In this document: positions 8,977 through 23,765 of the stretch, in pieces
Numbering within the stretch: the first letter of the stretch is position 1
How the letters are laid out: every line of letters starts with the position of its first letter
NCBI RefSeq assembly: GCF_963676275.1
Contig: NZ_OY781091.1
Location: 1,466,775 to 1,530,774 of the forward strand
Origin: an uncultured Cohaesibacter sp.
GTDB lineage: Bacteria > Pseudomonadota > Alphaproteobacteria > Rhizobiales > Cohaesibacteraceae
Reading direction: 5' to 3'
DNA length: 64,000 nucleotides
The notes under the pieces: model-generated
Told to the model about the DNA's origin: nothing
Database searches by the model: none
The model's input: the letters and a program-made list of their open reading frames with translations, nothing else
Translations under genes and position numbers: made by a program

Positions 8977-9150
8977 GACATTACACTTTTGAAAAAGACA
9001 ATTACGCCTTAAGCCTACCGTCTTTGGTATCTCGCTGCATGGTTTTGTTTGCGCTTTCCGCTATATCCACCAAAACCGGATTCACGCAGCGTGTAAGGAG
9101 GCGGAGGTCTCCACCCGAACGATCCTGACAGAACGATTGCGCCCTAGTCG

Positions 9151-9309: not shown

Positions 9310-9401
9310 TCCACAATCTGCCCTCTTTGTTTGGAGAGCAGCCGGGCGCCATGAATTTCGGCGCTGGAACGAATGTCCGGAAAGTCCGCTTACCTATCAC
9401 C

Positions 9402-9571
9402 TGGCCACTGAAAATGCTGCGGCTTGCTCGAACGGCAGGAATGCGGAAGCTGGCTTGCAGCAAATGCCAACTGACGAACGGCGGCTCTGGGCCGCGATTG
9501 CTAAACGCAAGCTAGGATGAGTGTTTTCGATGATGACGCGGTGCTCCAGACGGCAGGGAGCCCTCTTTGCC
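9402..9571 (+). repeat. Dispersed intergenic repeat, copy A
   Basis: Shares ordered blocks with 11662-11839: TGGCCA, AAAATGCTGCG, AACGGCA, CTGGCTTGCAGCA, ATGAC.GCGGT, CCAGA..GC.GGGAGC. The long collinear match with many substitutions marks it as a diverged member of a repeat family. A third, shorter copy is at 10941-11025. Confidence 0.65.
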
Positions 9572-9704
9572 AGAAGAGTACATCGACGCATGAAATTTAG
9601 GCTCAGATGCTGTAGACGCCTCCTAAAGGATCAACGAAATCCCACCTTCACACATCAGAGCCAGCGGCGGGCGTCAACAACATCAGAGCCTAAAAATTTC
9701 GTTT

Positions 9705-10223
9705 TTAATAACCACGCCAAATTTTGCCGCAGTTAGTCATGGGTACGAAAGCCAAATTCTTTGAACTCAAATTGCGGAATTGCTCTGACTTAAATCCAGA
9801 GGGGCCTCTATTTTCCAAAATCCAAGCCCGGTCTTCCGCTGTGAGCCCATCTGCATCAGCTCGAAATTCGACTTTTACAAAGCCAACGGAATAGCCAGTC
9901 AATCTACGAAAAATACCAATTGATATTCCTTTCCAACCGGTTGGGGACATCTCACAACAATTTGGATTTTTCTGAACAAAATCCTCATAACTCTGATACT
10001 CGACGTGGTTAACAATTTTTTTCGAGAAAAATCCCGGAATGCGAAATCTTTGGGGAGGGTAGTGTTCGTAGACAGATCGCATGGCAGCCTCGAAAAATTC
10101 TTGATCTTGTAGCCATCTTCTCTGGTCAGTACAGAAATCGTTATAGACAAGTATTTGGCGGAAAATGAGAAATGCTGCCAAACAAAGCAGAAGCAGTAAT
10201 GGTAATCTCCTTTTGGGCTGCAT
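9705..10223 (-). CDS. Hypothetical membrane-anchored protein
   Basis: Not recognised; 172 aa from the ATG at 10223 (an ATG eight codons further upstream, at 10247, would overlap the neighbouring broken gene). A hydrophobic segment at about residues 8-24 (LPLLLLLCLAAFLIF) suggests a signal anchor. The rest is a soluble domain rich in aromatic residues with four scattered Cys (FCTDQRR, NPNCCEM, TNCGK). It follows the frameshifted gene at 10225-10862 with no gap, so the two were probably one operon. There is no helpful functional context. Confidence 0.5.
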   Translation of the reverse strand: MQPKRRLPLLLLLCLAAFLIFRQILVYNDFCTDQRRWLQDQEFFEAAMRSVYEHYPPQRFRIPGFFSKKIVNHVEYQSYEDFVQKNPNCCEMSPTGWKGISIGIFRRLTGYSVGFVKVEFRADADGLTAEDRAWILENRGPSGFKSEQFRNLSSKNLAFVPMTNCGKIWRGY

Positions 10224-10224
10224 T

Positions 10225-10862
10225 TTACTTTTTCCTGTAATGGCCATGAACTAGAAATTGATAAAGAGGTGGATCAGATGCATATGGCCCGGGCACTAAA
10301 TGTGGCTCTTGATAGTCTGATAACCATGGCAACAGTTGCCTGATCCCCTTCGTTAACGGCTCGAATGTAATCATTATGCTTGCTACGAGGAATTTGACAT
10401 GTTCCAGAGTGCCTGCCGACAAGCCGAACAAGACTTGAAACGCCTCTTCTGTTGTTCTTCTCTAGCAGATTGCAAGCTCTTATGACCAGAAAATTGAATA
10501 CGCCGCCCCCTGAAAGAGCCATCTTCACGGGCGGTTGCCATAAGAGCAAAAACGGATTTCTTGCCAGGCAAATCCACGATGACAGCCTCACAAGATGTCC
10601 GCATGCTCAACACGCCAAGGCTCAACGGAACTCTGTCGCAAATTATGAAAAACTTCTGCACACCACTACCGGTGACAGGAACGCCATCCACTTCAAAAGT
10701 CACATCAAGACGGTAATGGACACTGCGCCACGGCATATACAATTCAACAGCCAGCCAGCCGCAAAAGAAGAGAGCTGTAAGCCACGCGAACGAGCGCTTT
10801 GTCCTACCACTTACATTTACAATCATTGCGTCCATTAGGGGATGTTTATTTTTTACCACCAT
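10225..10862 (-). pseudogene. Frameshifted paralogue of the gene at 23766-24497
   Basis: Read in three successive frames, this stretch reproduces the intact protein at 23766. Frame 1 (10862 to about 10512) gives RLDVTFEVDGVPVTGSGVQK, then CEAVIVDLPGKKSVFAL. Frame 2 (about 10516 to 10316) gives GGVFNFLVIRAC, LVRLVGRHSGTCQIP and VNEGDQATVAMVI. Frame 3 (about 10341 to 10225) gives LLPWLSDYQEPHL and HGHY. The counterparts in the intact copy are RLEVTFEVDGKPVTGSGVQR, GGYNFLIEIAC, VRFVGRLNRTCDIP, SDETDPASVKRVI, LPWISEYEGDRL and HGYF. Two frameshifts, the second with loss of about 30 codons, make it non-functional unless the assembly is wrong. Confidence 0.8.
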
Positions 10863-10940
10863 AACTTGATGTGGCTGAATTTCCCATTGTCGATTTTGCA
10901 GTGCATGTCTCGAAAGTATGCCAATCTGACACCGGGGCTA

Positions 10941-11025
10941 TGAAAATGCTGCACCTCGGTCGAACGGCTGCAATGGGGAAGCTTGCTTCTGGGATGTAAC
11001 CTCTGTCGAGAGGCCGGTAAGGGCC
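10941..11025 (+). repeat. Dispersed intergenic repeat, copy C (short)
   Basis: Begins TGAAAATGCTGC, then GTCGAACGGC, GAAGCTTGCTT and GGCCGCGAA in the order seen in copy A at 9412-9515. Only the left half of the longer element is present. Confidence 0.5.
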
Positions 11026-11293
11026 GCGAAATTTCGAGTTGATTGGGTTCGAACATTTTCCTTTGGTACTCCGCTTTGAAATGGAAATAGCAAGAGACTT
11101 GAGATTTGATCTCATGGGGAGCCAACCGCACGAACCTAAGCCTCCATTTGCGATATTGATTTGCCATCTAGCATTTATGCATATCAGGCTTTTCTGCTTT
11201 CGATTTCAAGAAGCATGAATTTTAACTAGCTCGACGCTTGTCGGTGCGCGAAGTGGTCAGTTCCGCGGAACTCGACCTTTTTGTTTCCCGCCT

Positions 11294-11446
11294 ATGCGCG
11301 AGAATGTCGGCGCGACATCCGTCGAATTCACAGATGAAGAGCTGGCAGAACTCAATACGGCGGTTCGGGCAATCGAAATCAAGGGCGCTCGCCTGCCTGA
11401 TGCCGTTCAAGCCATGTCCGGCGTAGAGGCTCCGGAAAAGATGTAG
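11294..11446 (+). pseudogene. C-terminal remnant of an aldo/keto reductase
   Basis: The frame from 11294 to the TAG at 11446 reads MRENVGA, then EFTDEELAELNTAVRAIE, GARLPDA and AMSGVEAPEKM. This is the last helix region of AKR13-type aldo/keto reductases (compare [20 protein letters not shown] in the intact enzyme at 55874-56863). Only about 50 residues of roughly 330 remain, with no catalytic barrel upstream. It is a decayed fragment, not a gene. Confidence 0.65.
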
Positions 11447-11661
11447 ACCGACAACAACGGTTTCAACATACGTTGACTTTCAATTCTAGTCTCTAGCCAA
11501 TGCCCCATCTCGGTTTAAAAGAAGAATTCCGGACTGAGGTGGGGATTGGGCCGATACATTAACTGCCAAATGATGAGTAAGCGTTCGGTAACCTACAGCA
11601 AGATAAACAAGCGGGAATGGAAGCCCGGCGCAAACAGCAATCGCTGCATTTTACACTCAAC

Positions 11662-11839
11662 TGGCCACCCTGCTACTAAAATGCTGCGCTCTGCGCTAAC
11701 GGCAAGAATAGGGACACTGGCTTGCAGCATGTGTAATACGATGAATGACCGGATTGGGCCGAGAATGCAATTCACGAGCCGGGATGAGCGTTTACCGGTG
11801 GTGACGCGGTGTACCAGATGGCTGGGAGCTCCTTTTATG
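11662..11839 (+). repeat. Dispersed intergenic repeat, copy B
   Basis: Collinear with copy A at 9402-9571: TGGCCA, AAAATGCTGCG, CTAACGGCA, CTGGCTTGCAGCA, GATGAGCG, GGTGACGCGGTG and CCAGATGGC.GGGAGC. It contains a short extra segment near the middle relative to copy A. Confidence 0.65.
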
Positions 11840-12374
11840 ACCTTCGGAATTATGGTTTGTTGGTAGCGCTGAAACAGTGATCGGAAATCGCACCACACCG
11901 CCATCATGCGAGTTTTGATGAGCAGCAGCAGATTGCTGCTCGGATGCAGACATTTGTACTGGATACCGCCTAGCTTGCACGCAAACTTCATCGGCACGGC
12001 CTTCCTATGCCGTCTCGTAGGAAATGCTCATCCTGATGTGTCCTTGTTGGCTATGGATTCAAGCGTGCTTTCATAAGCCTCCACTCATGCTTCGTTGGGA
12101 ACAGTTGAGCAGCGCTGATAAGTGTTTTCATAATCGGTAAATGTTGGCAACAAGGGAAAGTATGACTCACCAGGAGGCGGGCCGTTCATAAATAGGTCTT
12201 TGTCGCGAAGGCATGTTTTCATCGAAAAGGGGACCGTTTTCTAGAAATATACGCCCCCTGATTCAGTGATGAATATCGCTTTGTGGCCGAACCTGCATTT
12301 CGAAGATATCGACAGTAAAGGGTGTCGGCTTCTCGATCCCTGCAGATGCTGACAAGGCGCAATCGCAGCGCATT

Positions 12375-12674
12375 GTGGATCATATCCGCCGGAAGCCGAA
12401 GGCTGCGAATAGGATTGGGCAACGGATGGGCTCCATGCTCGGCAGATTGACCAAGATATTGAAGGAGACGGCGGAAAGGATCAGAAATTGTGAGGCCGAA
12501 CTCACGCATATCTATGAAAATTTGCCTGAGTTTATGCAGGCTTTTGGAAAGGGAATGAGCCAGCAGGAGTTTAACAATATGATGATCAAGCTGAAGGTTG
12601 CGCTTGCAATGAAGACAATCCGGGACGGGCTCAAGCGTGGCAAGACCGGGAAAATGGACGTGGAGGAAAGGTAA
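12375..12674 (+). CDS. Doubtful small helical protein
   Basis: A GTG-started frame of 99 aa; the open frame extends left to 12273 without an ATG. The sequence is charged and helical (GRLTKILKETAERIRNCEAE; GMSQQEFNNMMIKL), with the regular look of real protein. However, no ribosome site precedes the GTG and no family is recognised. It may be the tail of a decayed gene. It lies about 270 bp upstream of the defence operon on the same strand. Confidence 0.3.
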   Translation: MDHIRRKPKAANRIGQRMGSMLGRLTKILKETAERIRNCEAELTHIYENLPEFMQAFGKGMSQQEFNNMMIKLKVALAMKTIRDGLKRGKTGKMDVEER

Positions 12675-12887
12675 TAGCTTGTTCCCGGCGGTTTGCGTGA
12701 AAGCTGAAGCGGCGCAATTCATCGGGGGAGGATCTATCTGCTTGAGTCCATAAGCCGATGTCGTGGGTTGGTAGATACTTCTAATAGAGGCTTTGAGAGA
12801 AGGACTTTCCGAAGGTAGGTGGATTAATCTGAAAAGTTGCTCCTTTTGTCTATTGCGTACATTGGTTTAAATGTGATTATCCTGAAA

Positions 12888-12907
12888 TGTATTTTGTATA
12901 AATACAA
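12888..12907. promoter_or_regulatory. Palindromic operator/promoter of the defence operon
   Basis: TGTATTT (12888-12894) and AAATACA (12900-12906) form a perfect inverted repeat with a 5-nt gap; the overlapping TTGTAT-AA-ATACAA is also a perfect palindrome. It ends 36 bp before the methyltransferase ATG and includes a TATAAA-like -10 sequence. It is a plausible repressor site on the promoter. Confidence 0.45.
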
Positions 12908-12942
12908 TTTATAGATTCATTCTCAGGAAGCCAATTAAGCCA

Positions 12943-15711
12943 ATGAATGCCGTTGAGATCGAGGAGGCCGTATCGCGGCTAGCCGAACAGCCGTTTGATG
13001 CTGAAGCGTTCCCATATGCCTTCCTTGAAGCCTTCGACAACAAGCCGACGACGATCAAGCGGTTGAAAAAGGGCGAGACCAATTCTTCCAACATCGAAGG
13101 CGGCGTGCTTCAGCGCAACCATATCCATATAGCGGTTGCGCCAAAGGGCAAGGTCTCGGCCATGTTGACCCGCTTGAGGGAAAGCCCCGCGACCGCCAAG
13201 GCAAAGGCTAAATTCATCCTCGCGACTGACGGCGAAACACTGGAAGCGGAAGACATCAACTCCGGCGAGACGATTGCCTGTGACTATGCCGACTTCCCGA
13301 ACCATTTTGGCTTCTTCCTTCAACTGGCAGGTATTTCCACTGTCAAGCAGATCCGGGAAAGCACCTTCGATATCCGCGCCACAGCGCGCCTCAACAAGCT
13401 ATATGTTCAGCTGCTTGAAGATAATCCTGACTGGGGCAAGGCGGATCGCCGCCATGAGATGAACCATTTCATGGCACGGCTGATCTTTTGCTTCTTCGCC
13501 GAGGATACTGACATTTTCATCGGCGGCAATCTCTTCACTGCCACCATTGCGCAGATGACCGCACGGGACAGCTCCAACACCCATGAGGTGATTTCGGAAA
13601 TGTTCCGGGCGATGAATCTCAAGAGTGACGAACGGGAAGGGAGTGGCCTGCCTCGTTGGGCCGATAGCTTCCCCTACGTCAACGGTGGCCTCTTTGCGGG
13701 CGATTGCCAGGTACCGCACTTCACCAAGATTGCCAGGACCTATCTGCTGCATATCGGCAATCTGGATTGGACCAAGGTCAATCCGGACATTTTCGGCTCG
13801 ATGATTCAGGCGGTGGCCGATGATGACGAGCGCGGTGCGCTGGGCATGCACTATACCTCAGTGCCCAATATCCTTAAGCTGCTCAATCCTCTGTTTCTGG
13901 ATGACCTGCGCAGCAAGCTTGAGGAGGCGGGCGACAGTCCGCAGAAACTGTCCAATCTGCGCAAACGGATGGCCAGGATCCGGGTGTTTGATCCGGCCTG
14001 CGGCTCGGGCAATTTTCTTGTCATCGCCTACAAGCAGATGCGTGAGATCGAAGCCGAAATCAACCGGCGGCGCGGCGTGCCAGACCGGCGCACAGAAATC
14101 CCCCTGACCAATTTCCGCGGTATCGAGATCCGCGATTTTCCGGCCGAGATTGCCCGCCTTGCTCTCATCATTGCCGAATATCAGTGCGATGTGCTCTATC
14201 GCGGCCAGAAGGAGGCTCTGGCCGAATTCCTGCCACTCGACAGGCAGAACTGGATCACCTGTGGCAACGCCCTTCGGCTCGACTGGCTGAGTATCTGCCC
14301 GCCGACTGGCTCAGGCGTCAAAATGAAGAGCGATGACCTGTTCGAAACGCCATTGCTGCAGGCGGAAATCGATTTCGAGAATGAAGGTGGCGAAACCTAC
14401 GTCTGCGGCAATCCGCCTTATCTCGGTTCGACCTGGCAAAGCAAAGAGCAGAAAGACGATCTGAAAAGCATCTTCGATGGACGCACCAAAAGCTGGAAGT
14501 CGCTGGACTATGTTGCTGGCTGGTTCATGAAGGCAGCGGACTATGGCCTTCACACCCAATCGGTTGCTGCCTTTGTGTCAACCAATTCGATCTGTCAGGG
14601 CCAGCAGGTGCCAATCCTCTGGCCGCTCATCTTTAGCACCGGCCATGAAATCGCCTTTGCCCACACTAGCTTCAAATGGGCCAATCTCGCCAGTCACAAT
14701 GCGGGGGTGACTGTGGTGATCGTGGGAATTTCAAATCATGAGGGGCGTAACAAGAGGCTATATTCTGCTTCTTTCGATGGAAGTACAGTTCTGAAGTATC
14801 AAGAGAATATAAATGCGTACCTAGTCGGTGGAAAAAGTATTGTCGTCCATAAGGCTGCAAAACCGCTAAATTCTCTATCGGAAATGAGTTTTGGAAACAA
14901 AGCTGTTGACGGCGGAAACTTAACTATATCTCGGAATGAATTAGATGAATTGGGTCTATCTTCCAGTAAAATTCTTAGATTTATTCGGCGTTTTTACGGA
15001 TCTGCTGAGTTTATTCGTGGTTTAGTGCGGTATGTAATATGGATAGAAGATCAAAACCTTGATGAAGCCAACCAACTATTGCCGATAAGGCAACGTGTTG
15101 AAGGTGTTCGCCAAATGCGCCTCGCAAGTCCAGACAAAGGTGCGAATGAAATGGCAAAACGCCCGCACCAGATGCGCGAAATGAACTTCGGTTCTTTCCA
15201 AGCAATTGTGGTTCCTCGTGTTAGTTCCGAAAACCGGGACTATCTGCCTGTTGGCCTAGTCGAGGGTGGAACAATCATAGGAGATCGAAACTTCGCCCTC
15301 TATGACGCCCCACTCTGGAATATGGCGCTGATTGCATCGCGGCTGCATTGGGTCTGGATCGGAACAGTTTGTGTTCGCATGCGTACCGACTTCTCCTATT
15401 CCAACACCCTCGGCTGGAACACCTTCCCTGTTCCCAAACTCACCGAGAAGAACAAGGCCGATCTGACCCGCTGTGCCGAGGAGATCCTGCTGGCCCGCGA
15501 GGCCCATTTCCCCGCCACCATCGCCGATCTCTACGACCCTGCCGCCATGCCTGATGATCTGCGCGCTGCCCACGAGCACAACGACGAAGTGCTCGAACGC
15601 ATCTATATCGGCCGCCGCTTCAAGAATGACACCGAACGGCTGGAAAAGCTGTTCGATCTTTACACGAAAATGACGACGAAGGTTGAGGAGGCGAACGGTG
15701 CTACCGATTGA
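12943..15711 (+). CDS. MmeI-like class I SAM-dependent DNA adenine methyltransferase
   Basis: DNA methyltransferase, 922 aa, first gene of a four-gene operon. The N-terminal 330 residues are the MmeI-type N and helical spacer domains. Motif I FDPACGSGNFL is near residue 350 and motif IV GNPPY near 490, typical of N6-adenine methylases. Residues about 590-800 should be the target-recognition domain, and the C-terminal 120 residues (NTLGWNTFPVPKL onward) match the family's end. In MmeI the N-terminus carries a D...ExK nuclease; here I see TDGETLEAED and no clear ExK, so cleavage probably comes from the downstream GIY-YIG genes. Bases 14720-15330 (the recognition domain) are far more AT-rich than the flanks. 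Start chosen at the ATG with AGGAAG upstream. Confidence 0.85.
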   Translation: MNAVEIEEAVSRLAEQPFDAEAFPYAFLEAFDNKPTTIKRLKKGETNSSNIEGGVLQRNHIHIAVAPKGKVSAMLTRLRESPATAKAKAKFILATDGETLEAEDINSGETIACDYADFPNHFGFFLQLAGISTVKQIRESTFDIRATARLNKLYVQLLEDNPDWGKADRRHEMNHFMARLIFCFFAEDTDIFIGGNLFTATIAQMTARDSSNTHEVISEMFRAMNLKSDEREGSGLPRWADSFPYVNGGLFAGDCQVPHFTKIARTYLLHIGNLDWTKVNPDIFGSMIQAVADDDERGALGMHYTSVPNILKLLNPLFLDDLRSKLEEAGDSPQKLSNLRKRMARIRVFDPACGSGNFLVIAYKQMREIEAEINRRRGVPDRRTEIPLTNFRGIEIRDFPAEIARLALIIAEYQCDVLYRGQKEALAEFLPLDRQNWITCGNALRLDWLSICPPTGSGVKMKSDDLFETPLLQAEIDFENEGGETYVCGNPPYLGSTWQSKEQKDDLKSIFDGRTKSWKSLDYVAGWFMKAADYGLHTQSVAAFVSTNSICQGQQVPILWPLIFSTGHEIAFAHTSFKWANLASHNAGVTVVIVGISNHEGRNKRLYSASFDGSTVLKYQENINAYLVGGKSIVVHKAAKPLNSLSEMSFGNKAVDGGNLTISRNELDELGLSSSKILRFIRRFYGSAEFIRGLVRYVIWIEDQNLDEANQLLPIRQRVEGVRQMRLASPDKGANEMAKRPHQMREMNFGSFQAIVVPRVSSENRDYLPVGLVEGGTIIGDRNFALYDAPLWNMALIASRLHWVWIGTVCVRMRTDFSYSNTLGWNTFPVPKLTEKNKADLTRCAEEILLAREAHFPATIADLYDPAAMPDDLRAAHEHNDEVLERIYIGRRFKNDTERLEKLFDLYTKMTTKVEEANGATD

Positions 15712-16666
15712 AGCCATCAAGGCAAGCCCGGCAGAGGTCTGGCTTACCAGTTTTTATGGTTTTACGCCCGAGCTCTGGGGATTTCTGGGCTTTTCAAACC
15801 CAGGGAACAGGAAATCCTTCATCAAGGAGGCCGCCGACGGTGCTCTGGTCGTCATTTATGGCCACAAAAGCAAATCTCCGAAGGACATGCAAGGGTACAT
15901 CTTGGGTGTCTTGCAGGTTTCGCGTCGCATCAATCACGCTCAGGCATTCATGGATCCCATTGAATGGAAAATCAAGGAAACCAATGCCGACTCCAAGGGC
16001 AAATGGAATGAAGCGGTCAAAGCAACAAGAGCTTGGCGCGTTGTTCCAGAATCTTATGTATCGGTTGATGAGTTTGCCGATGAAACCTATTCGAGGGAAA
16101 AAGCTCAGTCCATGGGCTCACTTCCTGCGCGCCTGACTCAAAAGGAGGCTCTGAAGCTCCTCGATCTGGTCCTGGTTGAAACGCCAGTGTTTGGCGAGAC
16201 GCCGATCGATGCGGCTTCTCCCGTCCTGGCCCGGACTCTTTTCTCTCCCTCGAAGGCAGGCCCGATTTCTCAAGAGGGCTATTTCTGCAAAGAAGCGGAG
16301 GGGCCCAAGCAAAACTACATTCTCAAGCTGGAAGGTGACACAAGTGCTTTTCTTGGTCGGCCTTCTGAAGGCAGTATCATCATCAAGGTCGGCCTGTCTT
16401 GCAGCCCCTATACGCGCCAGAGAGCCTTCAATGCCTCCCTGCCAGCAGGCGCCTTTTCCTGGGCTTTGATGAGGTCGAATGAATTGGACGGTCGTCCTGC
16501 CTATCCATCCTCCAAAGCAGCTTTGGCGGGAGAAGCGGCTATGAAGGACTATCTTGCCAGAAATGGCATGTCTCTCGGAGGCGAGTTCTTTTTGGCAAGT
16601 CAGGATGCTATCGCCGACGCGTGGAAGTACGGCATAGGTGCCGCAGAAAAGGGGTATTATGACTAA
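15698..16666 (+). CDS. PUA-like N-domain plus GIY-YIG/T5orf172-like C-domain protein
   Basis: 322 aa, starting GTG at 15698 inside the end of the methyltransferase, six bases after a perfect AGGAGG. The C-terminal third contains IIKVGLSCSPYTRQRAFNAS (about residues 226-245) and then LPAGAFSW. This resembles the core of the T5orf172/GIY-YIG nuclease fold (KIG-x-T-x-xP-x-xR). The N-terminal 110 residues (VWLTSFYGF, DGALVVIYGHKSKSPKDMQG, YILGVLQVSRR) recall PUA/EVE-like domains, which in other proteins read modified bases. Both domain calls come from visual pattern only. It ends 8 bp inside the helicase gene. A nuclease or modification sensor of the system is the likely role. Confidence 0.55.
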   Translation: MLPIEAIKASPAEVWLTSFYGFTPELWGFLGFSNPGNRKSFIKEAADGALVVIYGHKSKSPKDMQGYILGVLQVSRRINHAQAFMDPIEWKIKETNADSKGKWNEAVKATRAWRVVPESYVSVDEFADETYSREKAQSMGSLPARLTQKEALKLLDLVLVETPVFGETPIDAASPVLARTLFSPSKAGPISQEGYFCKEAEGPKQNYILKLEGDTSAFLGRPSEGSIIIKVGLSCSPYTRQRAFNASLPAGAFSWALMRSNELDGRPAYPSSKAALAGEAAMKDYLARNGMSLGGEFFLASQDAIADAWKYGIGAAEKGYYD

Positions 16667-18722
16667 ATCCATCCCTTCTGTATCTGTCAATTACGCTGCA
16701 AATGGCAGCTCGAAAAAGTCTAATGAGCTTGGCATGCGGGTAATGCAGGAGCGCGCCTATGAGAAGCGTGGTGAGCAATATCTGTTGATCAAATCCCCTC
16801 CGGCCTCTGGTAAGAGCCGGGCCTTGATGTTCATAGCGCTCGACAAGCTGCACAATCAGGGGCTTAAACAGGCTCTGATCATCGTGCCGGAAAAGGCCAT
16901 CGGTGCCAGCTTCAATGATGAACCCCTGAGCAAGTTCGGCTTCTATTGGGATTGGCATGTTGAGCCGAAATGGAACCTCTGCAACGCGCCGGGCGAAGAC
17001 AGCAGCCCCAACAGCGGCAAGGTCAAGGCGATCGGCAGCTTTCTGGAAAGCGGCGATCCGCTGCTGGTCTGCACCCACGCGACCTTCCGCTTTGCCGTAG
17101 AGAAATATGGTATCGAGGCCTTTGATGACCGACTGTTGGCCGTGGACGAATTCCACCATGTTTCGGCCAACGAGGACAACAAGCTGGGTGCCTATCTCAG
17201 CCAGTTCATCGCCCACGATAGGGTTCATATTGTCGCCATGACTGGCTCCTATTTCCGCGGTGATGCCGCCCCCGTGCTCGCGCCTGACGATGAAGCCCGG
17301 TTCGAAACGGTGACCTACACCTATTACGAACAGCTCAACGGCTATGAATATCTAAAGACCCTCGACATCGGCTACTATTTTTACACCGGCCTCTATGCCG
17401 ACAGCATTCTGGAAGTGCTCGCCCCGACACAGAAGACCATCATTCACATCCCGAACGTAAATTCCAGTGAGAGCTCAAAGGACAAATATCGCGAGGTTGA
17501 GTACATCATCGGCGCTCTTGGCGAGTGGCAAGGTATTGACCCTGATACAGGTTTCAATCTGGTCAAGCGGGAGGATGGCACAGTCCTGCGCATTGCGGAT
17601 CTGGTTGATGACGACTCAAGCAAGCGCGAGAAGGTTTCTGCCGCGCTCAAGCGCGCTGAAGAGAAGAACAATCGCGATCACGTCGATATCATCATCGCTC
17701 TCGGCATGGCCAAGGAAGGGTTCGACTGGATCTGGTGTGAACATGCGCTCACAATCGGCTACAGGGCCAGTCTGACCGAGATCATCCAGATCATTGGCCG
17801 GGCGACCCGCGACGCCAAGGGCAAGACGCGCGCGCGCTTCACCAACCTGATTGCCGAACCGGACGCTTCCGAGGAAGCCGTCGCAGATGCGATCAATGAT
17901 ACCCTCAAGGCCATCGCCGCCAGCCTGCTCATGGAACAGGTTCTGACCCCGAAATTCAATTTCACGGCCAAAAGCCCGGCCAGCAGACCAGCGGAAGGGT
18001 TCGACTATGGCGAAGGCGGGTATGACCCCGATAAGGAGAATGTCGGTTTCAATGAGGAAACCGGCCAATACCAGATCGAAATCACGGGACTTGTCGAACC
18101 AAAAAGTCCCGAGGCAAAGCGCATTGTGAAGGAGGACCTCAACGAACTGGTAGCCGCGTTTGTGCAAGACAAGCCGTCACTGGAACGCGGCCTATTCGAT
18201 GAGGAACTGGTGCCAGAAGAGCTGACACAGGTGCGCATGGGCAAGATCGTGCGCGATAAGTTCCCTAATCTTGATACTCACGATCTGGAGGCTGTTCGCC
18301 AGCAGGCCATTGCTGCTCTCACCTTTACCCAGCAGGCCAAGGCCGCTGCGGCTTCGCACGATGAGGATGTTGTGGTGGGCGGCAATACAGCCCTGCTTGA
18401 TGGTGTTCGCAAATTTGCCATGGATGTCAGAGAGCTGGACATCGACCTGATTGATCATATCAACCCGTTTGGTGAAGCCTATGCGATTATGTCCAAGGCC
18501 ATGAACGAGGAAAGCCTCAAACAGGTTGCAGCCATCATCTCGGGTCGGAAAACCAAGCTGTCCCCTGAAGAAGCAAAAGATCTTGCTATTCGTGCCGTCC
18601 GTTTCAAGAAGGAAAGAGGCCGGTTGCCTGATATCGCCTCGCAGGATGCCTGGGAAAGCAAAATGGCAGAAGGCGCTGAAGCCTTCCGCCGCTATAAGGA
18701 CGAAGGCCGCTATGACAACTGA
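16659..18722 (+). CDS. SF2 DEAD/DEAH-type helicase of the defence operon
   Basis: ATP-driven helicase or translocase, 687 aa from the ATG at 16659 overlapping the previous stop by 8 bp. Walker A PPASGKSR lies at residues 47-54, motif II as DEFHH at about 163-167, motif III as MTGS and motif VI IIGRATRD near 379-386. The C-terminal 250 residues are helical and unassigned, probably contacting partners. The RecA pair resembles the helicase subunits of type I and type III restriction enzymes. Its place between the methyltransferase and two GIY-YIG-like proteins suggests ATP-dependent DNA tracking before cutting. There is no nuclease motif within this protein. Confidence 0.85.
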   Translation: MTKSIPSVSVNYAANGSSKKSNELGMRVMQERAYEKRGEQYLLIKSPPASGKSRALMFIALDKLHNQGLKQALIIVPEKAIGASFNDEPLSKFGFYWDWHVEPKWNLCNAPGEDSSPNSGKVKAIGSFLESGDPLLVCTHATFRFAVEKYGIEAFDDRLLAVDEFHHVSANEDNKLGAYLSQFIAHDRVHIVAMTGSYFRGDAAPVLAPDDEARFETVTYTYYEQLNGYEYLKTLDIGYYFYTGLYADSILEVLAPTQKTIIHIPNVNSSESSKDKYREVEYIIGALGEWQGIDPDTGFNLVKREDGTVLRIADLVDDDSSKREKVSAALKRAEEKNNRDHVDIIIALGMAKEGFDWIWCEHALTIGYRASLTEIIQIIGRATRDAKGKTRARFTNLIAEPDASEEAVADAINDTLKAIAASLLMEQVLTPKFNFTAKSPASRPAEGFDYGEGGYDPDKENVGFNEETGQYQIEITGLVEPKSPEAKRIVKEDLNELVAAFVQDKPSLERGLFDEELVPEELTQVRMGKIVRDKFPNLDTHDLEAVRQQAIAALTFTQQAKAAAASHDEDVVVGGNTALLDGVRKFAMDVRELDIDLIDHINPFGEAYAIMSKAMNEESLKQVAAIISGRKTKLSPEEAKDLAIRAVRFKKERGRLPDIASQDAWESKMAEGAEAFRRYKDEGRYDN

Positions 18723-19926
18723 TCTTGATGAACTCTACGACGAGCTGGAAGGCTACGCCAAGGCCGAGAAGCCGAAATCACGATCGCCTAAGGAAGAGCG
18801 GATCATTGCTGGCTTTGAAGAAATTCAGCGCTTTGTTGAGGAACACGGTCATCTGCCGCAACCTGGGCAGGATCGCGACATCTTCGAGAGGATCTATGCA
18901 ACGCGCCTTGATCAGATCCGTAATCAGCCGGAATGCCGCGAAATTCTGGCTGTTTTGGATCATCAGGGACTATTGCAGGGCGATACTGAAGCCGAGGCGC
19001 CGATCGAAGACATCAGTGACGATGAACTGCTTGCTGAGCTTGGTGGCTCTGTGGGCAGGGAAGACGATATCCGCCAGCTTAAGCATGTGAAATCCAGAGC
19101 TGAGGTTCATGCCGCTGAAGAGATAGCAGACCGTACACCCTGTGAAGATTTCGAACGCTTTAAGCCGATTTTTGAAGCTGTTCACAAAGAGCTGAAGGAA
19201 GGAGTTAGGGAAACCCGCAAGTTTGAGCTGAAATCTGAGATCGAGGTCGGGCGCTTTTTTGTCGTTGGCGGATTGATAGCGTATGTCGCAGAAAAAGGAG
19301 AAACTTATTCCAATGAGCAAGGCCGAACCGATGCCCGGCTGCGTGTCGTGTTTGACAACGGTACAGAGAGCAACATGCTCATGAGATCGCTTCAGCGCTC
19401 TCTCCATAAGGATGGGGATGCCGGCAGACGCATTACCGATCCAATCGCGGGGCCTCTATTTTCCGGAATAGCCGAACAGGAAGATCTTGCCAGTGGAACA
19501 ATCTATGTGCTGCGCAGCAAGTCATCCCATCCTCTGGTCAAGCAGCATGGGGAAGTCCTGCACAAGATCGGTGTGACAGGGGGGAGCGTTGAGAAGCGGA
19601 TCGCCAATGCTGCCCTTGATCCGACCTTCCTGCTGGCCGATGTTGAGATCGTCGCCACCTACATTCTCTACAACATCAAGCGAACCAAGCTTGAGAATCT
19701 CATTCATAAGTTCTTTGAGCCTGCCCGCCTGGAAATCCAGATTCCAGATCGCTTTGGAAATCTGGTAACGCCGAGAGAATGGTTTCTCGTTCCGCTTTAC
19801 GCTATCGATGAAGCGGTTAATCGGATCAAGGAAGGAACGTTGGCAGACTATTGCTACGATCCTTTGAGGGCTGAGCTCCACTACCGCATTCAAGCTTCGG
19901 CATCCTCCATTCTACAAAAAGAATGA
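18712..19926 (+). CDS. GIY-YIG (T5orf172-type) nuclease family protein
   Basis: Probable endonuclease of the defence operon, 404 aa from ATG 18712, overlapping the helicase stop by 11 bp. The C-terminal nuclease domain starts near residue 261: GTIYVLRSKS (the GIY strand), LHKIGVTGGSVEKRIANA (the YIG strand and the conserved Arg helix), then TKLENLIHKFF, which holds the expected catalytic Glu, and PREWF, the usual Asn/Trp-Phe end motif. The N-terminal 240 residues are acidic and helical and probably mediate assembly. This protein type is often seen beside a DEAD/DEAH helicase and a class I methyltransferase. A longer frame begins at 18526, but its upstream part lies inside the helicase gene. 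Confidence 0.8.
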   Translation: MTTDLDELYDELEGYAKAEKPKSRSPKEERIIAGFEEIQRFVEEHGHLPQPGQDRDIFERIYATRLDQIRNQPECREILAVLDHQGLLQGDTEAEAPIEDISDDELLAELGGSVGREDDIRQLKHVKSRAEVHAAEEIADRTPCEDFERFKPIFEAVHKELKEGVRETRKFELKSEIEVGRFFVVGGLIAYVAEKGETYSNEQGRTDARLRVVFDNGTESNMLMRSLQRSLHKDGDAGRRITDPIAGPLFSGIAEQEDLASGTIYVLRSKSSHPLVKQHGEVLHKIGVTGGSVEKRIANAALDPTFLLADVEIVATYILYNIKRTKLENLIHKFFEPARLEIQIPDRFGNLVTPREWFLVPLYAIDEAVNRIKEGTLADYCYDPLRAELHYRIQASASSILQKE

Positions 19927-20102
19927 TTTTGTTAGCCTCTGTGTGATAATAATTCAGGCAATAAACGGGAGAAGGCTGCTCCACCGCGGGCCTACGCAGC
20001 GCCCATGATTGGCCCATGAAATAGCCCGAATTTGGGGGGCAAAATGGGGTGTGAGTTTGGCGAGAAATTCAATGATTTCAATGTCGTTTCTTCCAGTCCT
20101 TC

Positions 20103-20150
20103 GCCTTCGGGAGGCAGGGGCCGGAGGTTCGAATCCTCTCACTCCGACCA
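20103..20150 (+). other. 3' fragment of tRNA-Pro(CGG): probable att site
   Basis: The 48 nt contain an anticodon loop TTCGGGA (anticodon CGG) with the 3' stem GGCAG, the variable loop, a complete T arm (GGAGG TTCGAAT CCTCT) and the acceptor strand CACTCCG followed by ACCA. The D arm and 5' acceptor strand are absent; upstream sequence does not fit a tRNA. Such 3' halves are what site-specific integration into a tRNA gene leaves at the far end of an island. With the tRNA on the + strand, the island should lie to the left, with the whole tRNA at its other end. No intact copy and no integrase are in the window. Confidence 0.7.
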
Positions 20151-20599
20151 ACCTTTTCAATAGGTTGGGTCTTTCCCCTTTGGGTGAAAAACAAAAAACT
20201 CATCAGAAATTCACTAGAAATATTTATGGCGAAGTGATCGTATCTGCGCGTCGTCGATTTCGTGTGAACAAAGTATGCGTTAATACCGCAAGCTCACAAA
20301 GCGAGCCTGCATGGTTAACTGCGCCCACCTCCCTGCCTGTTCTGGGGAGAGGCCTTGGTTTTATGGTGTGAGCCCTAACTTTGGACTGCCGGAAAACCAG
20401 CTTCTCTGGATTCCCTAACCGTTACGGGCAGGTTTCACCACCGGTATCACGCGGTGCAACGAGGATGCTCTATTCGACTGCCAAGTCAGGTCGATCCTCA
20501 TTGCTGTGTGTGAGGCTGATCTCCAACTTTTATCTTTATCTGTAAGGGTTGTGAACCGGTTTGCGTCAAGGCAGCCTCGAACCTGTTCCCAGAGGCTCG
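20151..20599. other. Gene-free stretch after the tRNA scar
   Basis: No coding sequence, hairpin with T-run, or repeat that I can support. It separates the tRNA fragment from the end of the dehydratase gene. Confidence 0.4.
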
Positions 20600-21844
20600 T
20601 CACAAAGTGAAGGATCGGCTCGCGAGGACTTTTTCTTCATCGATATGCATGCCAAGTCCGGCTTTTTCGGGGGTGAAAATCCGCCCCTTTTGGGGCCAGG
20701 GCGCGTCCTTGAGGAAATGCATGTTGATGTCATTCCATTTGGCGAGATATTCGATCAAGGGCACTTGGGCAGGGGATTGGGCCGCTGAGAAATGAATGCC
20801 CGCAGGGATCGAATGGCCATGAGGGATCAGTGTCACATCATGAACCGAGGCGAGGGCGGCTATTTTTATGATCTCTGAAACGCCCCCGCACCAATAAATG
20901 TCGGGTTGATAAATATCGAGCGCCTGTTTTTCGATAAAGCGCAGCATCCCCCAGCGGGTATATTCATGTTCTGCTCCGGAAAGCGGAATAGACGTCTTTT
21001 CTTTCAATCTGGCATGAACATCGATTCTGTCTGGCAGGAAAGGCTCCTCAAGCCATGAGGGCTGATAAGGGGCGATGCGTCGGCATAGCTCAACCGCATA
21101 TTCATAAGTCAGGGACTGCCAGGCATCGAACATGATCGGATAGTCATCGCCCACCGCTTCTCGTACAGTACGAACCAGCGCGACATTCTTGTTCATGCCG
21201 TCGATGCCTTCAGCGGGCGTGTGGCGGAAGAACCATTTTTGCCCTTCAAAGCCCTCCTGTTTAAAAGCCTTGGCTCTGGTATGAACCAGTTCCTCATCGT
21301 CTACGCTATATCCCAGCATGGAGGCGTAAGCGGGGACGCTGTCTCTGGTCTTGCCGCCCAGCAAACGCCAGACAGGCTGACCAAGACACTTGCCTTTTAG
21401 GTCCCACAGCGCGCAATCGACGGCAGAAATGGCGATCATGCCATAGCCCTGACGACCATGCGCCTGACTGCGATGCATGATGTCCCAAATAAACTCGGTG
21501 GCCAAAGGGTCCCTGTCGATCAGGAGGGGGGCGAGTTCGTCCAGAATGATGCGAGCGGGGGCCTTCCACAAGGGGCCTGCGATGCCGACATGGCCGTCAT
21601 TCGCTTCAATTTCAAGAAACAGCTGACTGAGGTAAAACCCGCTTTCCGCCTTTTGCACGCCCCCCTCCCGAGGAGGCTCACCACGGAACTCGGCATAGAA
21701 ATCGAGCGGTCGCATCAAGCGTTCTTCCCAGAAGGGACCATTTGTTTCTATGATGCCGTCAAGCTGGCGAATGCGTATGCTGCAAATTTTCAACCGGCTA
21801 TCCGGTTCGATTGTCTCATTCTTATGCACCGATGATGACCTCAA
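20600..21844 (-). CDS. Enolase-superfamily sugar-acid dehydratase (mandelate racemase subgroup)
   Basis: Predicted acid-sugar dehydratase, 414 aa. The capping domain occupies about residues 1-140 and the barrel follows. Metal ligands appear in order: FDAW (Asp), WLEEPF (Glu) and SGAEHE (Glu), with the catalytic His in PHGHS, the pattern of the mandelate racemase/rhamnonate dehydratase side of the family. EGFEGQKWFFRH is close to the rhamnonate dehydratase motif WFF, but the substrate cannot be read from sequence. It overlaps the regulator gene upstream by 23 bp, forming a two-gene operon. The likely transporter gene across the divergent promoter is broken, so the pathway may be non-functional. 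Confidence 0.82.
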   Translation of the reverse strand: MRSSSVHKNETIEPDSRLKICSIRIRQLDGIIETNGPFWEERLMRPLDFYAEFRGEPPREGGVQKAESGFYLSQLFLEIEANDGHVGIAGPLWKAPARIILDELAPLLIDRDPLATEFIWDIMHRSQAHGRQGYGMIAISAVDCALWDLKGKCLGQPVWRLLGGKTRDSVPAYASMLGYSVDDEELVHTRAKAFKQEGFEGQKWFFRHTPAEGIDGMNKNVALVRTVREAVGDDYPIMFDAWQSLTYEYAVELCRRIAPYQPSWLEEPFLPDRIDVHARLKEKTSIPLSGAEHEYTRWGMLRFIEKQALDIYQPDIYWCGGVSEIIKIAALASVHDVTLIPHGHSIPAGIHFSAAQSPAQVPLIEYLAKWNDINMHFLKDAPWPQKGRIFTPEKAGLGMHIDEEKVLASRSFTL

Positions 21845-22568
21845 TCGGCAGATGGTCCATGTCGCCCCGAAACATCGCCTCTATCACGTCAGCAGTTTCA
21901 TGCACATGGATCTGGATCAGTTTCTCAACCTCATCATCGCGCCCATCGCGCAGCAGATTCACCAGCTCAATGTGGGTCGCGTGGGCATTCTCCACCTGCT
22001 CGACGGTGTTGGTGAGGCGATATCGGAGCGCAGAAACACGCCCGGCGATGCGTTCATATGCTTCTGTCAGGCTCTTGTTATGGGCGATCTCGAAAATGGT
22101 GTTGTGAAACTCAATGTCGAGAGGCTGAAAGGCCTGCGGGCCCATTCTCAGAATGGTCGCCGAGCGCGCAACGACATCACTCAGTCTTTCAACAAGTTGG
22201 GACCGGTCTCGCTGACAGGCGAGCGCTATGGCGCCTTTTTCAAGAATGCTGCGCAATTCGCCAATTTCGCGCGCATCACTTTCATTGCAGGTGAAGACGA
22301 AGGTTCCGCGCTTGGGCCGAACCTCAACCATTTTTTCAGCCTCCAGCTTCATGAAGGCCTCCCGGACCGGGGTACGACTGACGCCGAGAACCTGCGCGAG
22401 GGCATTCTCTGAGAGCTGTTCTCCGAGGGCTATTTGCCCGGTTACGATCATGTCGCGTAATTGATTGGCGACGCGAACGGAGACCGACTCCGGTTCCTTT
22501 ATCGTCTGCATCTGAGACAGGAAAGACCGGCCGGAACCACTTTTCTCAATTTTTTTCGACTTTGGCAT
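21822..22568 (-). CDS. GntR-family regulator, FadR/FCD type
   Basis: Transcription factor, 248 aa. The winged helix at about residues 25-90 shows VRVANQLRDMIVTGQIALGE, QLSENALAQVLGVSRTPVRE and EKMVEVRPKRGTFV. The helical FCD ligand domain fills the rest, with the metal/ligand residues expected around EFH and HVHE. These regulators usually sense a sugar acid made or used by their neighbours and repress in its absence. It is co-transcribed with the dehydratase. Its likely operator is the palindrome at 22718-22734 in the promoter region, with a near-identical site at 25548-25564. Confidence 0.85.
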   Translation of the reverse strand: MPKSKKIEKSGSGRSFLSQMQTIKEPESVSVRVANQLRDMIVTGQIALGEQLSENALAQVLGVSRTPVREAFMKLEAEKMVEVRPKRGTFVFTCNESDAREIGELRSILEKGAIALACQRDRSQLVERLSDVVARSATILRMGPQAFQPLDIEFHNTIFEIAHNKSLTEAYERIAGRVSALRYRLTNTVEQVENAHATHIELVNLLRDGRDDEVEKLIQIHVHETADVIEAMFRGDMDHLPIEVIIGA

Positions 22569-22704
22569 ATTGATATATTCCCGAAATTATTCGCAGCCTA
22601 TTGGCGCCGAATGGACGTTGAGAACGGGCTGGGGACTTCGTCTGACTTGTGGTAATCGCTTGCATGTTATTGATCAATTTATGCAATAACACAATAGTTT
22701 CTCG

Positions 22705-22734
22705 TTGACAATCCAACTTGTATGTTACATACTA
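22705..22734 (+). promoter_or_regulatory. Promoter with GntR/FCD operator
   Basis: A consensus -35 TTGACA (22705-22710) is followed 17 bp later by CATACT. The -10 is embedded in the inverted repeat TTGTATGT-T-ACATACTA (22718-22734), whose core GTATGT-T-ACATAC is perfect. The TGT-x-ACA layout is the usual FCD-GntR operator. It would drive the truncated binding-protein gene at 22815, divergent from the regulator gene. Confidence 0.6.
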
Positions 22735-22814
22735 AGATGCGACGGTAAAATTGTCACAACTTTGGTCTAGCCAATATAGAAAAAGCCTTTTGGCGAAATT
22801 TGGGAGGAATCCAA

Positions 22815-22922
22815 ATGCTTAAAAAAGTTTCCGCAGCGCTTTGTGCAACCGCGGTGATCGCGCTTGCCGGTTTCAATGGTGCAAATGCCCAGTCGTCGTT
22901 GGTTTCAGAGGTAGATTTCTGA
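22815..22922 (+). pseudogene. Truncated transporter binding protein (signal peptide only)
   Basis: ATG at 22815 after a good GGGAGGA site. Residues 1-26 are a clean secretory signal peptide (MLKKVSAALCATAVIA, cut after GANAQ), as in periplasmic solute-binding proteins. After SSLVSE the frame runs into IS6-derived DNA and stops at residue 35. The gene faced away from the GntR/dehydratase operon under its operator, so it probably encoded the sugar-acid binding protein. The rest of the transporter is missing. Confidence 0.7.
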
Positions 22923-22931
22923 AACCAACGA
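22896..22931. repeat. Perfect 13-bp inverted repeat at the IS junction
   Basis: TCGTTGGTTTCAG (22896-22908) and CTGAAACCAACGA (22919-22931) are exact reverse complements with a 10-nt gap. The right arm is transposase coding sequence and the left arm lies in the broken signal-peptide gene, so the hairpin marks the rearrangement point. Confidence 0.75.
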
Positions 22932-23053
22932 TAGATCGTTGACAGGTCCACGGGCACGCCGCGTTCCGTTAGCATTTGTTCAAGATCTCGATAGCTTATG
23001 CCGTATCGTCAATACCAACAAACTGTCCACAAGATCACATCACCCTGAAAATG
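22917..23053 (-). mobile_element. IS6-family transposase N-terminal remnant
   Basis: Read on the minus strand from 23053: HFQGDVILWTVCWY, a stop codon, then RYGISYRDLEQMLTERGVPV and DLSTIYRWFQ. This is the N-terminal region (roughly residues 12-58) of IS6/IS240-type transposases. The in-frame TGA and loss of the DDE domain make it inactive. No terminal inverted repeats could be placed with confidence. Confidence 0.8.
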
Positions 23054-23340
23054 TCAGTCTAGAGCAGTTGTTTTTTGAAAAAAGAGCCGCGTTTAGGGCG
23101 CTGAGCATTTCCATAAAGCAAGCGAAGATCACTTTCCTCAAGTCAAATTCTATCTATAATTGAACTGGTTAAGCGATTGAGCTTGCTATTCAATAACTGA
23201 AACCACCAGAAATTGTAATTTTGGTCGTGACACGTTGATTGAAATTGTCCAGACTGAAGCGAATTGAAATCATCCAAAATATTAAAAGCCCCAGCAAGTC
23301 AGAAGATTAGCAAATTCTTACGTTAAATCGGTCTTTAGCA

Positions 23341-23658: not shown

Positions 23659-23765
23659 TAGGACCGAGGGGCCCGCAGAATGCACTGAATAAAGGGGTTC
23701 AAGAGAATCTTGGATCGGAAGTTTGCATCGTTTAAATTCAATCGTTTCTAATCTAGTAGATTGTA

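What the first reader, a model, noticed from the sequence alone, without database searches (positions are those of the whole stretch)
12943..19926. Four-gene coupled defence operon: MmeI-like methylase, PUA/GIY-YIG-like protein, SF2 helicase, GIY-YIG nuclease
Overlaps of 14, 8 and 11 bp show one translational unit. The sequence shows an N6-adenine methylase without a visible ExK nuclease site, a helicase with motifs I, II and VI, and two proteins with GIY-YIG-like cores. From family knowledge, MmeI-type enzymes cut by themselves; here cutting and tracking seem to be moved to separate subunits. I cannot match this exact four-part set to a named system, so it may be undescribed or only sparsely described.
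Basis: partly seen in the sequence, partly recalled or inferred. Interest (0 to 1): 0.78.

Follow-up and report, generated by a model that had tools for sequence, protein, structure and literature searches.

The report
Restriction operon with a swappable slot
A bacterial DNA-defence operon of a known but little-studied kind (a DNA-marking enzyme, a DNA motor and a cutter) carries a fourth gene, probably a reader of chemically modified DNA joined to a cutter, in a slot where related operons carry other genes or nothing.

Summary
The four genes, their order and the 14-, 8- and 11-bp overlaps are confirmed. Genes 1, 3 and 4 are a DnmA(YeeA)-YeeB-YeeC cluster (MmeI-family m6A methyltransferase without its nuclease motif, SF2 helicase, T5orf172/GIY-YIG protein), in print as a 'Type I-like' RM candidate. 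Gene 2 is the new part: its N-terminal half is EVE/YTH-like by predicted fold; its C-terminal half is a probable GIY-YIG nuclease, weakly supported by sequence and not by fold. The set recurs: of 40 gene-2 homologues found in one scan of GTDB contigs, 18 lie exactly between methyltransferase and helicase. That position is a variable slot: of 36 operons drawn by the helicase, 19 have a gap of at most 40 nt and 17 more than 250 nt, with RhuM, PD-(D/E)XK or YhcG genes in some. Gene 2 is gained or lost often and also accompanies Type ISP, MmeI+Mrr, Type I and Type III genes. Best reading: a Type I-like RM core carrying a modification-dependent (type IV-like) reader-nuclease as an exchangeable cassette, near one end of a 42.6-kb element integrated at tRNA-Pro. 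New variant of a known kind; function untested.

The parts
12943..15711 (+). Gene 1: DnmA/YeeA-type MmeI-family gamma-class N6-adenine methyltransferase with its target-recognition domain; MmeI nuclease motif absent
   Evidence: Pfam MmeI_N, MmeI_hel, MmeI_Mtase (1.5e-121), MmeI_TRD, MmeI_C; PADLOC REase_MTase_IIG 6.5e-291; MmeI 5hr4 E 4.6e-133; no D-x(8-11)-ExK
15698..16666 (+). Gene 2: two-domain protein, EVE/YTH-type PUA-like reader plus probable GIY-YIG nuclease; cargo of the slot
   Evidence: No library match on its own; AF2 model pLDDT 88.4; best fold match 2p5d E 3.7e-4, then 1wmm, 1zce, 2ar1 and YTH at E 0.005-0.1; T5orf172 in 13 and EVE in 7 of 39 family members at E<=1, the window copy in neither
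15734..16193 (+). Gene 2, N-terminal half (about residues 13-165), read as PUA-like; W15, W27, W90, W103, W113 in 37-39 of 39 members
   Evidence: Foldseek with the whole model, not repeated by the C-terminal half alone; column counts
16307..16663 (+). Gene 2, C-terminal half (about residues 204-322): Y207, K230-x-G232, R240, E279, E296 invariant in 39 of 39; probable GIY-YIG
   Evidence: Pfam T5orf172 best E 5.7e-4 among members; column counts; no significant fold match
16659..18722 (+). Gene 3: YeeB, SF2 DEAD/ResIII-type helicase or translocase
   Evidence: Pfam DEAD 3.1e-6, ResIII 2.4e-4; motifs read; relatives up to 78% identical in other operons
18712..19926 (+). Gene 4: YeeC, T5orf172/MUG113 (GIY-YIG) nuclease candidate
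   Evidence: Pfam MUG113 6.2e-13, T5orf172 1.6e-11; Y, K-x-G, R, E, EW columns invariant in 10 aligned sequences
20103..20150 (+). Right end of a 42.6-kb integrative element: exact 48-bp copy of the 3' end of tRNA-Pro(CGG)
   Evidence: Own-genome pattern search, tRNA-Pro(CGG) at the left copy, 48-bp exact repeat, Phage_integrase beside the left copy

Best explanation
Genes 1, 3 and 4 form a DnmA-YeeB-YeeC restriction-modification core that works like a split, Type I-like enzyme. DnmA binds an asymmetric site of about six base pairs and methylates an adenine. At unmethylated sites it recruits or licenses YeeB, which moves along DNA using ATP, and YeeC, which cuts. Gene 2 is not a core subunit. 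It is an exchangeable accessory in a slot between the methyltransferase and helicase genes. Its EVE/YTH-type domain probably recognises a modified base, and its C-terminal domain probably cuts DNA, so it most likely attacks phages whose modified DNA escapes the core. Shown here: gene content, order and overlaps, absence of the MmeI nuclease motif, recurrence of the set, variability of the slot, repeated gain or loss of gene 2, and the PUA-like fold prediction. Inferred from families and precedent: translocation, cutting, base reading, division of labour.
For: Core identity: Pfam, PADLOC and PDB matches and the same gene order in B. subtilis, with helicase and nuclease families most often at the first and second positions downstream of DnmA homologues (PMC7261158, PMC9973331, passages). 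Nuclease motif absent in the window and in 44 of 44 relatives scanned. Gene 2 fold: best PDB match 2p5d (E 3.7e-4), then 1wmm, 1zce and 2ar1 (E 0.005-0.07; all four EVE proteins by recall), then Mmi1 YTH (0.1). Recurrence: 18 of 40 gene-2 loci have it exactly between methyltransferase and YeeB; YeeC is seen in 15 of these 18, and the other 3 contigs end first. Slot: 17 of 36 YeeB-drawn operons have more than 250 nt there, 19 have 40 nt or less; cargo includes RhuM, PDDEXK_4 and YhcG, one copy of each matching PADLOC candidate defence families PDC-S05, PDC-S26 and PDC-S02. Independence: gene 2 against YeeB rho 0.00 (493 of 999 permutations as high), YeeB against YeeC 0.60 (0 of 999), 15 loci; gene-2 presence needs 11 changes on a 52-row YeeB tree, 9 forced by supported branches. 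In L041 a second copy of the end of the methyltransferase gene (residues 885-920) stands between two cargo genes, as a scar of insertion would. Precedents: TgvAB, a type IV system embedded in a Type I operon (PMC11411939, passages), and EVE fusions to GIY-YIG nucleases (PMC7641849, passages).
Against: No experiment. The GIY-YIG assignment of gene 2 is weak: the window protein has no Pfam match, a fold search with a good model of this half found nothing significant, and comparison with YeeC failed (hhalign probability 1.4; local profile search). The distance test is not clean: gene 1, a core gene, tracks YeeB only weakly (rho 0.33, 13 of 999) and YeeC not significantly (0.20, 136 of 999), perhaps because TRDs are swapped. 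Gene-2 presence is still somewhat clustered on the YeeB tree (11 changes against 15.0 in shuffles, 3 of 500 as low). Tests in B. subtilis found no restriction of plasmid uptake and no phage protection by dnmA, yeeB or yeeC. 13 of 40 gene-2 relatives have no RM neighbour that I recognised. No modified base was tested.
Confidence: 0.56

Rival explanations
1. Gene 2 is a working fourth subunit of this variant: its PUA-like domain adds DNA contacts or a licence check and its nuclease domain works with or replaces YeeC after YeeB translocation.
For: Overlapping genes in the window; 4-nt overlap of the methyltransferase and gene-2 ORFs (counted from the first start codon) in 12 of 18 slot loci; the set recurs over several alphaproteobacterial families.
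Against: Present in 2 of 36 YeeB-drawn operons; YeeC is kept in all 36 of these and in 15 of 18 gene-2 slot loci, the other 3 contigs ending first; divergence does not track YeeB or YeeC; relatives occur with other RM kinds and without recognised RM genes.
Confidence: 0.21
2. Gene 2 reads N6-methyladenine, the mark made by its companion methyltransferases, and acts as a regulator or safeguard, for example limiting the system or cutting wrongly marked DNA, rather than attacking phages with modified cytosine.
For: 26 of 40 loci have a companion methyltransferase of adenine type, one of them only a TRD-like fragment and two of the N6/N4 class; YTH folds, which read m6A, come next after EVE in the fold search.
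Against: A nuclease that cut at the operon's own mark would attack the host; EVE proteins rank above YTH; 13 of 40 relatives have no recognised RM neighbour; no binding data.
Confidence: 0.13
3. The operon is a relic: an orphan methyltransferase with decaying restriction genes, as proposed for B. subtilis DnmA.
For: Negative restriction and phage tests in B. subtilis (PMC7261158, PMC9973331, passages).
Against: All four window ORFs are intact with conserved motifs; YeeB relatives up to 78% identical in other genomes and 77% in full-length plasmid matches; PMC9973331 reports that V. crassostreae deletions of dnmA and yeeB raised sensitivity to some phages (primary paper not seen).
Confidence: 0.1

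Closest known systems
DnmA(YeeA)-YeeB-YeeC of Bacillus subtilis (Type I-like RM candidate)
   Same: Nuclease-less MmeI-type m6A methyltransferase followed by an SF2 helicase and a T5orf172 protein, same order and strand
   Different: The published cluster has three genes; here an EVE-type gene lies between the first two. The B. subtilis copy showed no restriction in published tests.
MmeI (Type IIL)
   Same: All five MmeI domains and the shared target-recognition domain
   Different: No D...ExK nuclease motif; helicase and nuclease are separate genes
EVE-GIY-YIG fusion proteins predicted as modification-dependent restriction enzymes (Bell et al. 2020, PMC7641849, passages)
   Same: Same two-domain logic: PUA-like reader plus GIY-YIG-type nuclease
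   Different: Too divergent for Pfam in the window copy; embedded in an RM operon. I could not compare sequences with the examples of that paper.
TgvAB embedded in the Type I RM operon of V. cholerae VPI-2 (PMC11411939, passages)
   Same: A modification-dependent system carried inside an RM operon, suggested to give complementary cover
   Different: GmrSD-type (DUF262/DUF1524) proteins, two genes, inside hsd genes; no such domain was found in gene 2

Membership tests
DnmA-YeeB-YeeC cluster | MmeI-family methyltransferase without the N-terminal nuclease motif | tested here: met
   Pfam five MmeI domains; no D-x(8-11)-ExK in the window or in 44 of 44 relatives
DnmA-YeeB-YeeC cluster | SF2 helicase then T5orf172 gene downstream on the same strand | tested here: met
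   order as in PMC9973331
DnmA-YeeB-YeeC cluster | Methyltransferase and helicase genes adjacent, as in B. subtilis (a feature of the type case rather than a definition) | tested here: not met
   Gene 2 intervenes here; 17 of 36 YeeB-drawn operons have more than 250 nt between them, so adjacency is not kept in the family
DnmA-YeeB-YeeC cluster | N6-adenine methylation of an asymmetric site | not testable with these tools
   Needs long-read methylation data; motifs FDPACGSGNFL and NPPY are present
Type IIL MmeI enzymes | Single polypeptide that methylates and cuts (PD-ExK) | tested here: not met
   residues D70, E80, K82 from PMC4833311
Type I RM | HsdM, HsdS and HsdR genes | tested here: not met
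   Gene 1's best matches are MmeI models; the general N6_Mtase domain also passes its cut-off (28.7 bits) but no HsdS or HsdR model is matched by the four proteins
EVE domain proteins | EVE/PUA-like fold in the N-terminal half | tested here: met
   Foldseek best 2p5d E 3.7e-4, the only match under 0.001; next 1wmm, 1zce, 2ar1 at 0.005-0.07; Pfam EVE in 7 of 39 members, best E 0.014, none for the window copy. Met at fold level by a predicted model, not by sequence.
GIY-YIG (T5orf172) nucleases, gene 2 | GIY-YIG domain with catalytic Y, R and E | tested here: inconclusive
   T5orf172 in 13 of 39 members, best E 5.7e-4; Y207, R240, E279 invariant; no fold match; hhalign with YeeC 1.4
Type IV (modification-dependent) restriction | Cuts modified DNA and spares unmodified DNA | not testable with these tools
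   No activity data

The most novel reading that the evidence does not exclude
Gene 2 belongs to a portable family, found almost only in Alphaproteobacteria in my searches, of EVE-type reader-nucleases that plug into at least five kinds of methyltransferase-based restriction systems (DnmA-YeeB-YeeC, Type ISP with a PLD-helicase, MmeI+Mrr, Type I, Type III) as an anti-evasion module. The DnmA/YeeB junction is a cassette site where such modules are swapped as cleanly as target-recognition domains.
Probability: 0.4. Interest if true: 0.66.

Novelty: new variant of a known kind. Interest (0 to 1): 0.5.

Why it matters
The DnmA-YeeB-YeeC cluster is widespread but its function is disputed. Operons with closely related helicases that differ in target-recognition domain and slot cargo (pairs) are natural experiments to ask what the core does and what each cargo adds. 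The slot is also a place to look for further defence genes: it already holds members of three PADLOC candidate families and several proteins without any family. Gene 2, if a modification-dependent nuclease, would be a case outside Type I of a type IV enzyme embedded in a restriction operon to cover phages that escape it.

Tried and rejected
Considered and rejected: a Type I or BREX/DISARM assignment for gene 1 (only weak secondary matches to PglX and DrmMI); a direct relationship of the gene-2 C-terminal half with YeeC (hhalign probability 1.4; a local profile of that half did not retrieve YeeC above background, reversed sequences scoring as high); a fold match of that half to a GIY-YIG structure (none significant).

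Led nowhere: gene 2 in viral contigs (none of 91 candidate stretches) and in phage records (no match at 1e-3); Rfam over 9000-24000 (none at gathering score); PDB sequence searches with gene-2 profiles gave only non-significant best matches, PH1033 at E 0.81 and the UPF0213 protein 1ywl at E 0.97, which fit the reading but prove nothing. The first slot counts by ORF hid some genes behind longer antisense ORFs, so I recounted by tblastn. Labels 'empty' for L039, L121 and L126 in the tree are therefore wrong; the gene-2 count on that tree is not affected, and its occupied/empty count is not used. L066 is labelled gene-2-bearing there although its gene 2 lies downstream of YeeC. In L041 measured the gap from a second copy of the methyltransferase end; the true gap is larger; it counts as occupied either way.

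Dropped rows: L095 and L096 (no ORF matching gene 2; 40 of 42 kept); L026/L051 (G317, E 9e-4, no cluster); the fragmentary YeeB matches in G646 and G620 (L115-L117) were not followed up, L060 (partial methyltransferase) and L061 (near-copy of L030) were left out.
Full report
What is there. The four ORFs are present as described: 12943-15711, 15698-16666, 16659-18722 and 18712-19926, all +, overlapping by 14, 8 and 11 bp. Gene 2 starts at GTG 15698 behind GAGGAGG, with an alternative TTG at 15683.

Gene 1. Pfam finds all five MmeI domains (methyltransferase 1.5e-121, TRD 2.1e-82) and the MmeI structure 5hr4 is the best PDB match (4.6e-133). FDPACGSGNFL and NPPY fit the gamma-class motifs named in PMC4833311 (passages). 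MmeI's catalytic D70...E80-x-K82 (same paper) has no counterpart: a D-x(8-11)-ExK scan of the first 140 residues found none in the window and none in 44 relatives of 850 aa or more in the fetched loci, while a split MmeI protein in L090 has D-x9-ETK. Residues aligned to MmeI 806 and 808 are R and D. By analogy to the K-D pair that specifies G:C in PMC4833311, I predict G after the methylated adenine; this is inference.

Genes 3 and 4. Gene 3 is an SF2 helicase (DEAD 3.1e-6, ResIII 2.4e-4) with SPPASGKS, DEFH and QIIGRATRD in its sequence. Gene 4 matches MUG113 (6.2e-13) and T5orf172 (1.6e-11) in its C-terminal third, with Y, K-x-G, R, E and EW columns invariant in 10 aligned sequences.

The core is known. 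B. subtilis DnmA (YeeA) is an m6A methyltransferase of GACGAG, followed by yeeB and yeeC. PMC7261158 (passages) says Morgan et al. 2009 grouped it with MmeI homologues that lack the nuclease motif and are flanked by such genes, and that a Type I-like system was suggested. PMC9973331 (passages) reports helicase and T5orf172 families most often at the first and second position downstream of DnmA homologues, no effect on three phages in B. subtilis, and, citing another study that I did not see, raised phage sensitivity after deletion of dnmA or yeeB in Vibrio crassostreae. I searched the open library ten times and saw no description of a defined gene between dnmA and yeeB; PMC9973331 does mention an 'Uncharacterized protein family' scattered through DnmA neighbourhoods that might be another member in some bacteria.

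Gene 2 by itself matches nothing in Pfam, PADLOC, NCBIfam, PHROGs or PDB sequences at the limits used. I collected relatives in the class (6 of 385 genomes, own included), on plasmids (3 records of 72,556) and in GTDB contigs (42 loci; by title all Alphaproteobacteria except L067, a Fimbriimonadaceae MAG, and L094, titled Arthrobacter). Viral contigs and phage records gave none. Of 39 family members, 13 match T5orf172 (best E 5.7e-4), 7 MUG113 and 7 EVE (best 0.014) at E<=1; the window copy matches none. The AlphaFold2 model is good (pLDDT 88.4, pTM 0.65). Its best PDB match is 2p5d (E 3.7e-4, the only one under 0.001), then 1wmm, 1zce and 2ar1 (0.005-0.07) and the Mmi1 YTH domain (0.1). That the first four are EVE proteins is recalled; that they align with the N-terminal half is inferred from their length and from their absence among the matches listed for the C-terminal half. 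Five tryptophans in the N-terminal half are kept in 37-39 of 39 members. The C-terminal half was modelled alone (pLDDT 90.9) and found no significant fold match. Profile comparison with YeeC failed, and a local profile search did not connect them. Y207, K230-x-G232, R240, E279 and E296 are invariant in 39 of 39. I call this half a probable, not a shown, GIY-YIG nuclease.

Recurrence. Of the 42 GTDB loci, 40 have an ORF matching gene 2. In 18 it lies between a DnmA-type methyltransferase and YeeB on the same strand, in two of them with a further ORF beside it (L069, L077) and in L061 with further small ORFs (one search confirms YeeB in all 18 and YeeC in 15; the other 3 contigs end). In 1 (L066) it lies just downstream of YeeC. 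In 3 (L079, L081, L089) it follows a Type ISP-like methyltransferase with a PLD-SNF2 helicase before and an AlbA-domain gene after (for L079; the others by similarity). In L090 it stands between a split MmeI (with one unassigned ORF) and Mrr, in L087 between a fragment with a sub-threshold MmeI_TRD match and Mrr, in L074 beside Type III Mod and Res, in L070 0.9 kb from an N6/N4 methyltransferase, in L076 beside an Mrr gene. In 13 I recognised no RM gene, but not every neighbour was scanned. On a plasmid (L053) it follows hsdM and hsdS genes.

The slot. To count without bias for gene 2, I drew operons by YeeB: 18 of 385 genomes of the class and 24 of 398 of the phylum had a match. After leaving out one spurious match (G317), two genomes with fragments (G620, G646) and genomes seen twice, 36 operons remain, the window and two operons of G355 among them. 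I measured the gap between methyltransferase and YeeB by tblastn, less unaligned ends (the window by its own coordinates). In 19 it is 40 nt or less, in 17 more than 250 nt, none in between. In 14 of the 17 there is an open frame of 200 aa or more. Gene 2 is in 2 of 36 (window and L030). Among operons with YeeB at least 66% identical to the window's, 16 of 26 are occupied; among the divergent ones (44-49%), 1 of 10. Cargo includes RhuM (L036, L123), PDDEXK_4 (L037, L129) and RhuM with YhcG (L041). One of each was scanned in PADLOC and matches candidate families PDC-S05, PDC-S26 and PDC-S02. In L041 a second copy of the methyltransferase end (residues 885-920) stands between RhuM and YhcG, which looks like the scar of an insertion. 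L030 has gene 2 with a YafQ-type toxin gene.

Independent movement. Over 15 four-gene loci, YeeB and YeeC distances go together (rho 0.60, 0 of 999 permutations as high), while gene 2 goes with neither YeeB (0.00, 493 of 999) nor YeeC (-0.06, 634 of 999). The test is not clean: gene 1 tracks YeeB weakly (0.33, 13 of 999), and YeeC (0.20, 136) and gene 2 (0.20, 125) not significantly. On a quick tree of 52 YeeB proteins gene-2 presence needs 11 changes, 9 of them forced by supported branches; shuffled labels need 15.0, so presence is somewhat clustered. Six pairs of operons with related helicases and different slots were compared at DNA level. In the four pairs with whole methyltransferases, homology runs through the first about 1,470 bases of that gene, breaks in the TRD and returns for its last part; in all six it breaks in the slot and resumes at or just after the start of yeeB, running on into or through yeeC at 77-93% identity. 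So the TRD and the slot are the two exchanged segments. The association with gene 2 is not recent: 20 of 25 rows of one side of the gene-2 tree are DnmA-YeeB-YeeC companions, though that side's support is modest (86/49).

Mechanism. I think the core restricts like a Type I enzyme in pieces and gene 2 adds modification-dependent attack. Precedents: EVE-GIY-YIG fusions predicted as modification-dependent nucleases (PMC7641849, passages); TgvAB inside a Type I operon, active against T-even-like phages (PMC11411939, passages); winged-helix-GIY-YIG fusions shown to sense adenine methylation (PMC11037411, passages). Against: no activity data, a weak nuclease call, negative B. subtilis tests. A subunit role or an m6A-reading role for gene 2 is not excluded. 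On checking I lowered the main confidence slightly (0.58 to 0.56) because the distance test is less clean than first written.

Setting. The operon lies near the right end of a 42.6-kb element. The exact 48-bp 3' end of tRNA-Pro(CGG) stands at window 20103-20150 and again 42.6 kb upstream, where the tRNA is whole and a phage-type integrase lies next to it. In congener G007 a sequence like the one that follows the window copy stands directly behind an intact tRNA-Pro(CGG), as an empty site would; of the three congener loci examined, the other two showed no tRNA.

Verdict. It is a new variant of a known kind.

Noticed in passing
window 1-20150 and own genome 1444305-1486924 (L145, L146): A 42.6-kb element bounded by 48-bp repeats of the tRNA-Pro(CGG) 3' end, with a phage-type integrase at the left end; it spans the window from its start to 20150. 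A third copy of the tRNA end at 1013235 (45 bp exact) has no tRNA found beside it and may be the scar of another element.
   Followed up: partly
window 152-5831: HlyD-family adaptor, C39-peptidase ABC transporter and a second ABC transporter in a row: a peptide or protein export cluster in the same element.
   Followed up: no
L079 1997-11574, L081, L089: A recurring operon in Rhizobiales: PLD-SNF2 helicase, Type ISP-like methyltransferase, gene-2 relative, AlbA-domain gene; the helicase resembles PADLOC 'HKD+Snf2'.
   Followed up: partly
L035 6633-7577, L038 4762-5478, L127 3747-4577, L029 9017-9892: Slot genes with no Pfam match above cut-off and no PADLOC match; candidates for unknown defence genes.
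   Followed up: partly
L041 2634-2741: A 36-residue second copy of the methyltransferase end between two cargo genes (RhuM and YhcG), a possible footprint of how cargo enters the slot.
   Followed up: no
   Followed up: partly
L032 8813-10231, L052 7527-8960, L079-L086: Many gene-2 relatives outside the slot have ORFs of 440-480 aa, with an N-terminal extension of roughly 130 residues; two scanned whole (L079, L085) had no Pfam match. It may be a second DNA-binding domain.
   Followed up: no
window 12375-12674: A 99-aa ORF on the + strand upstream of the operon, without a Pfam match; could be a small regulator or chance.
   Followed up: no
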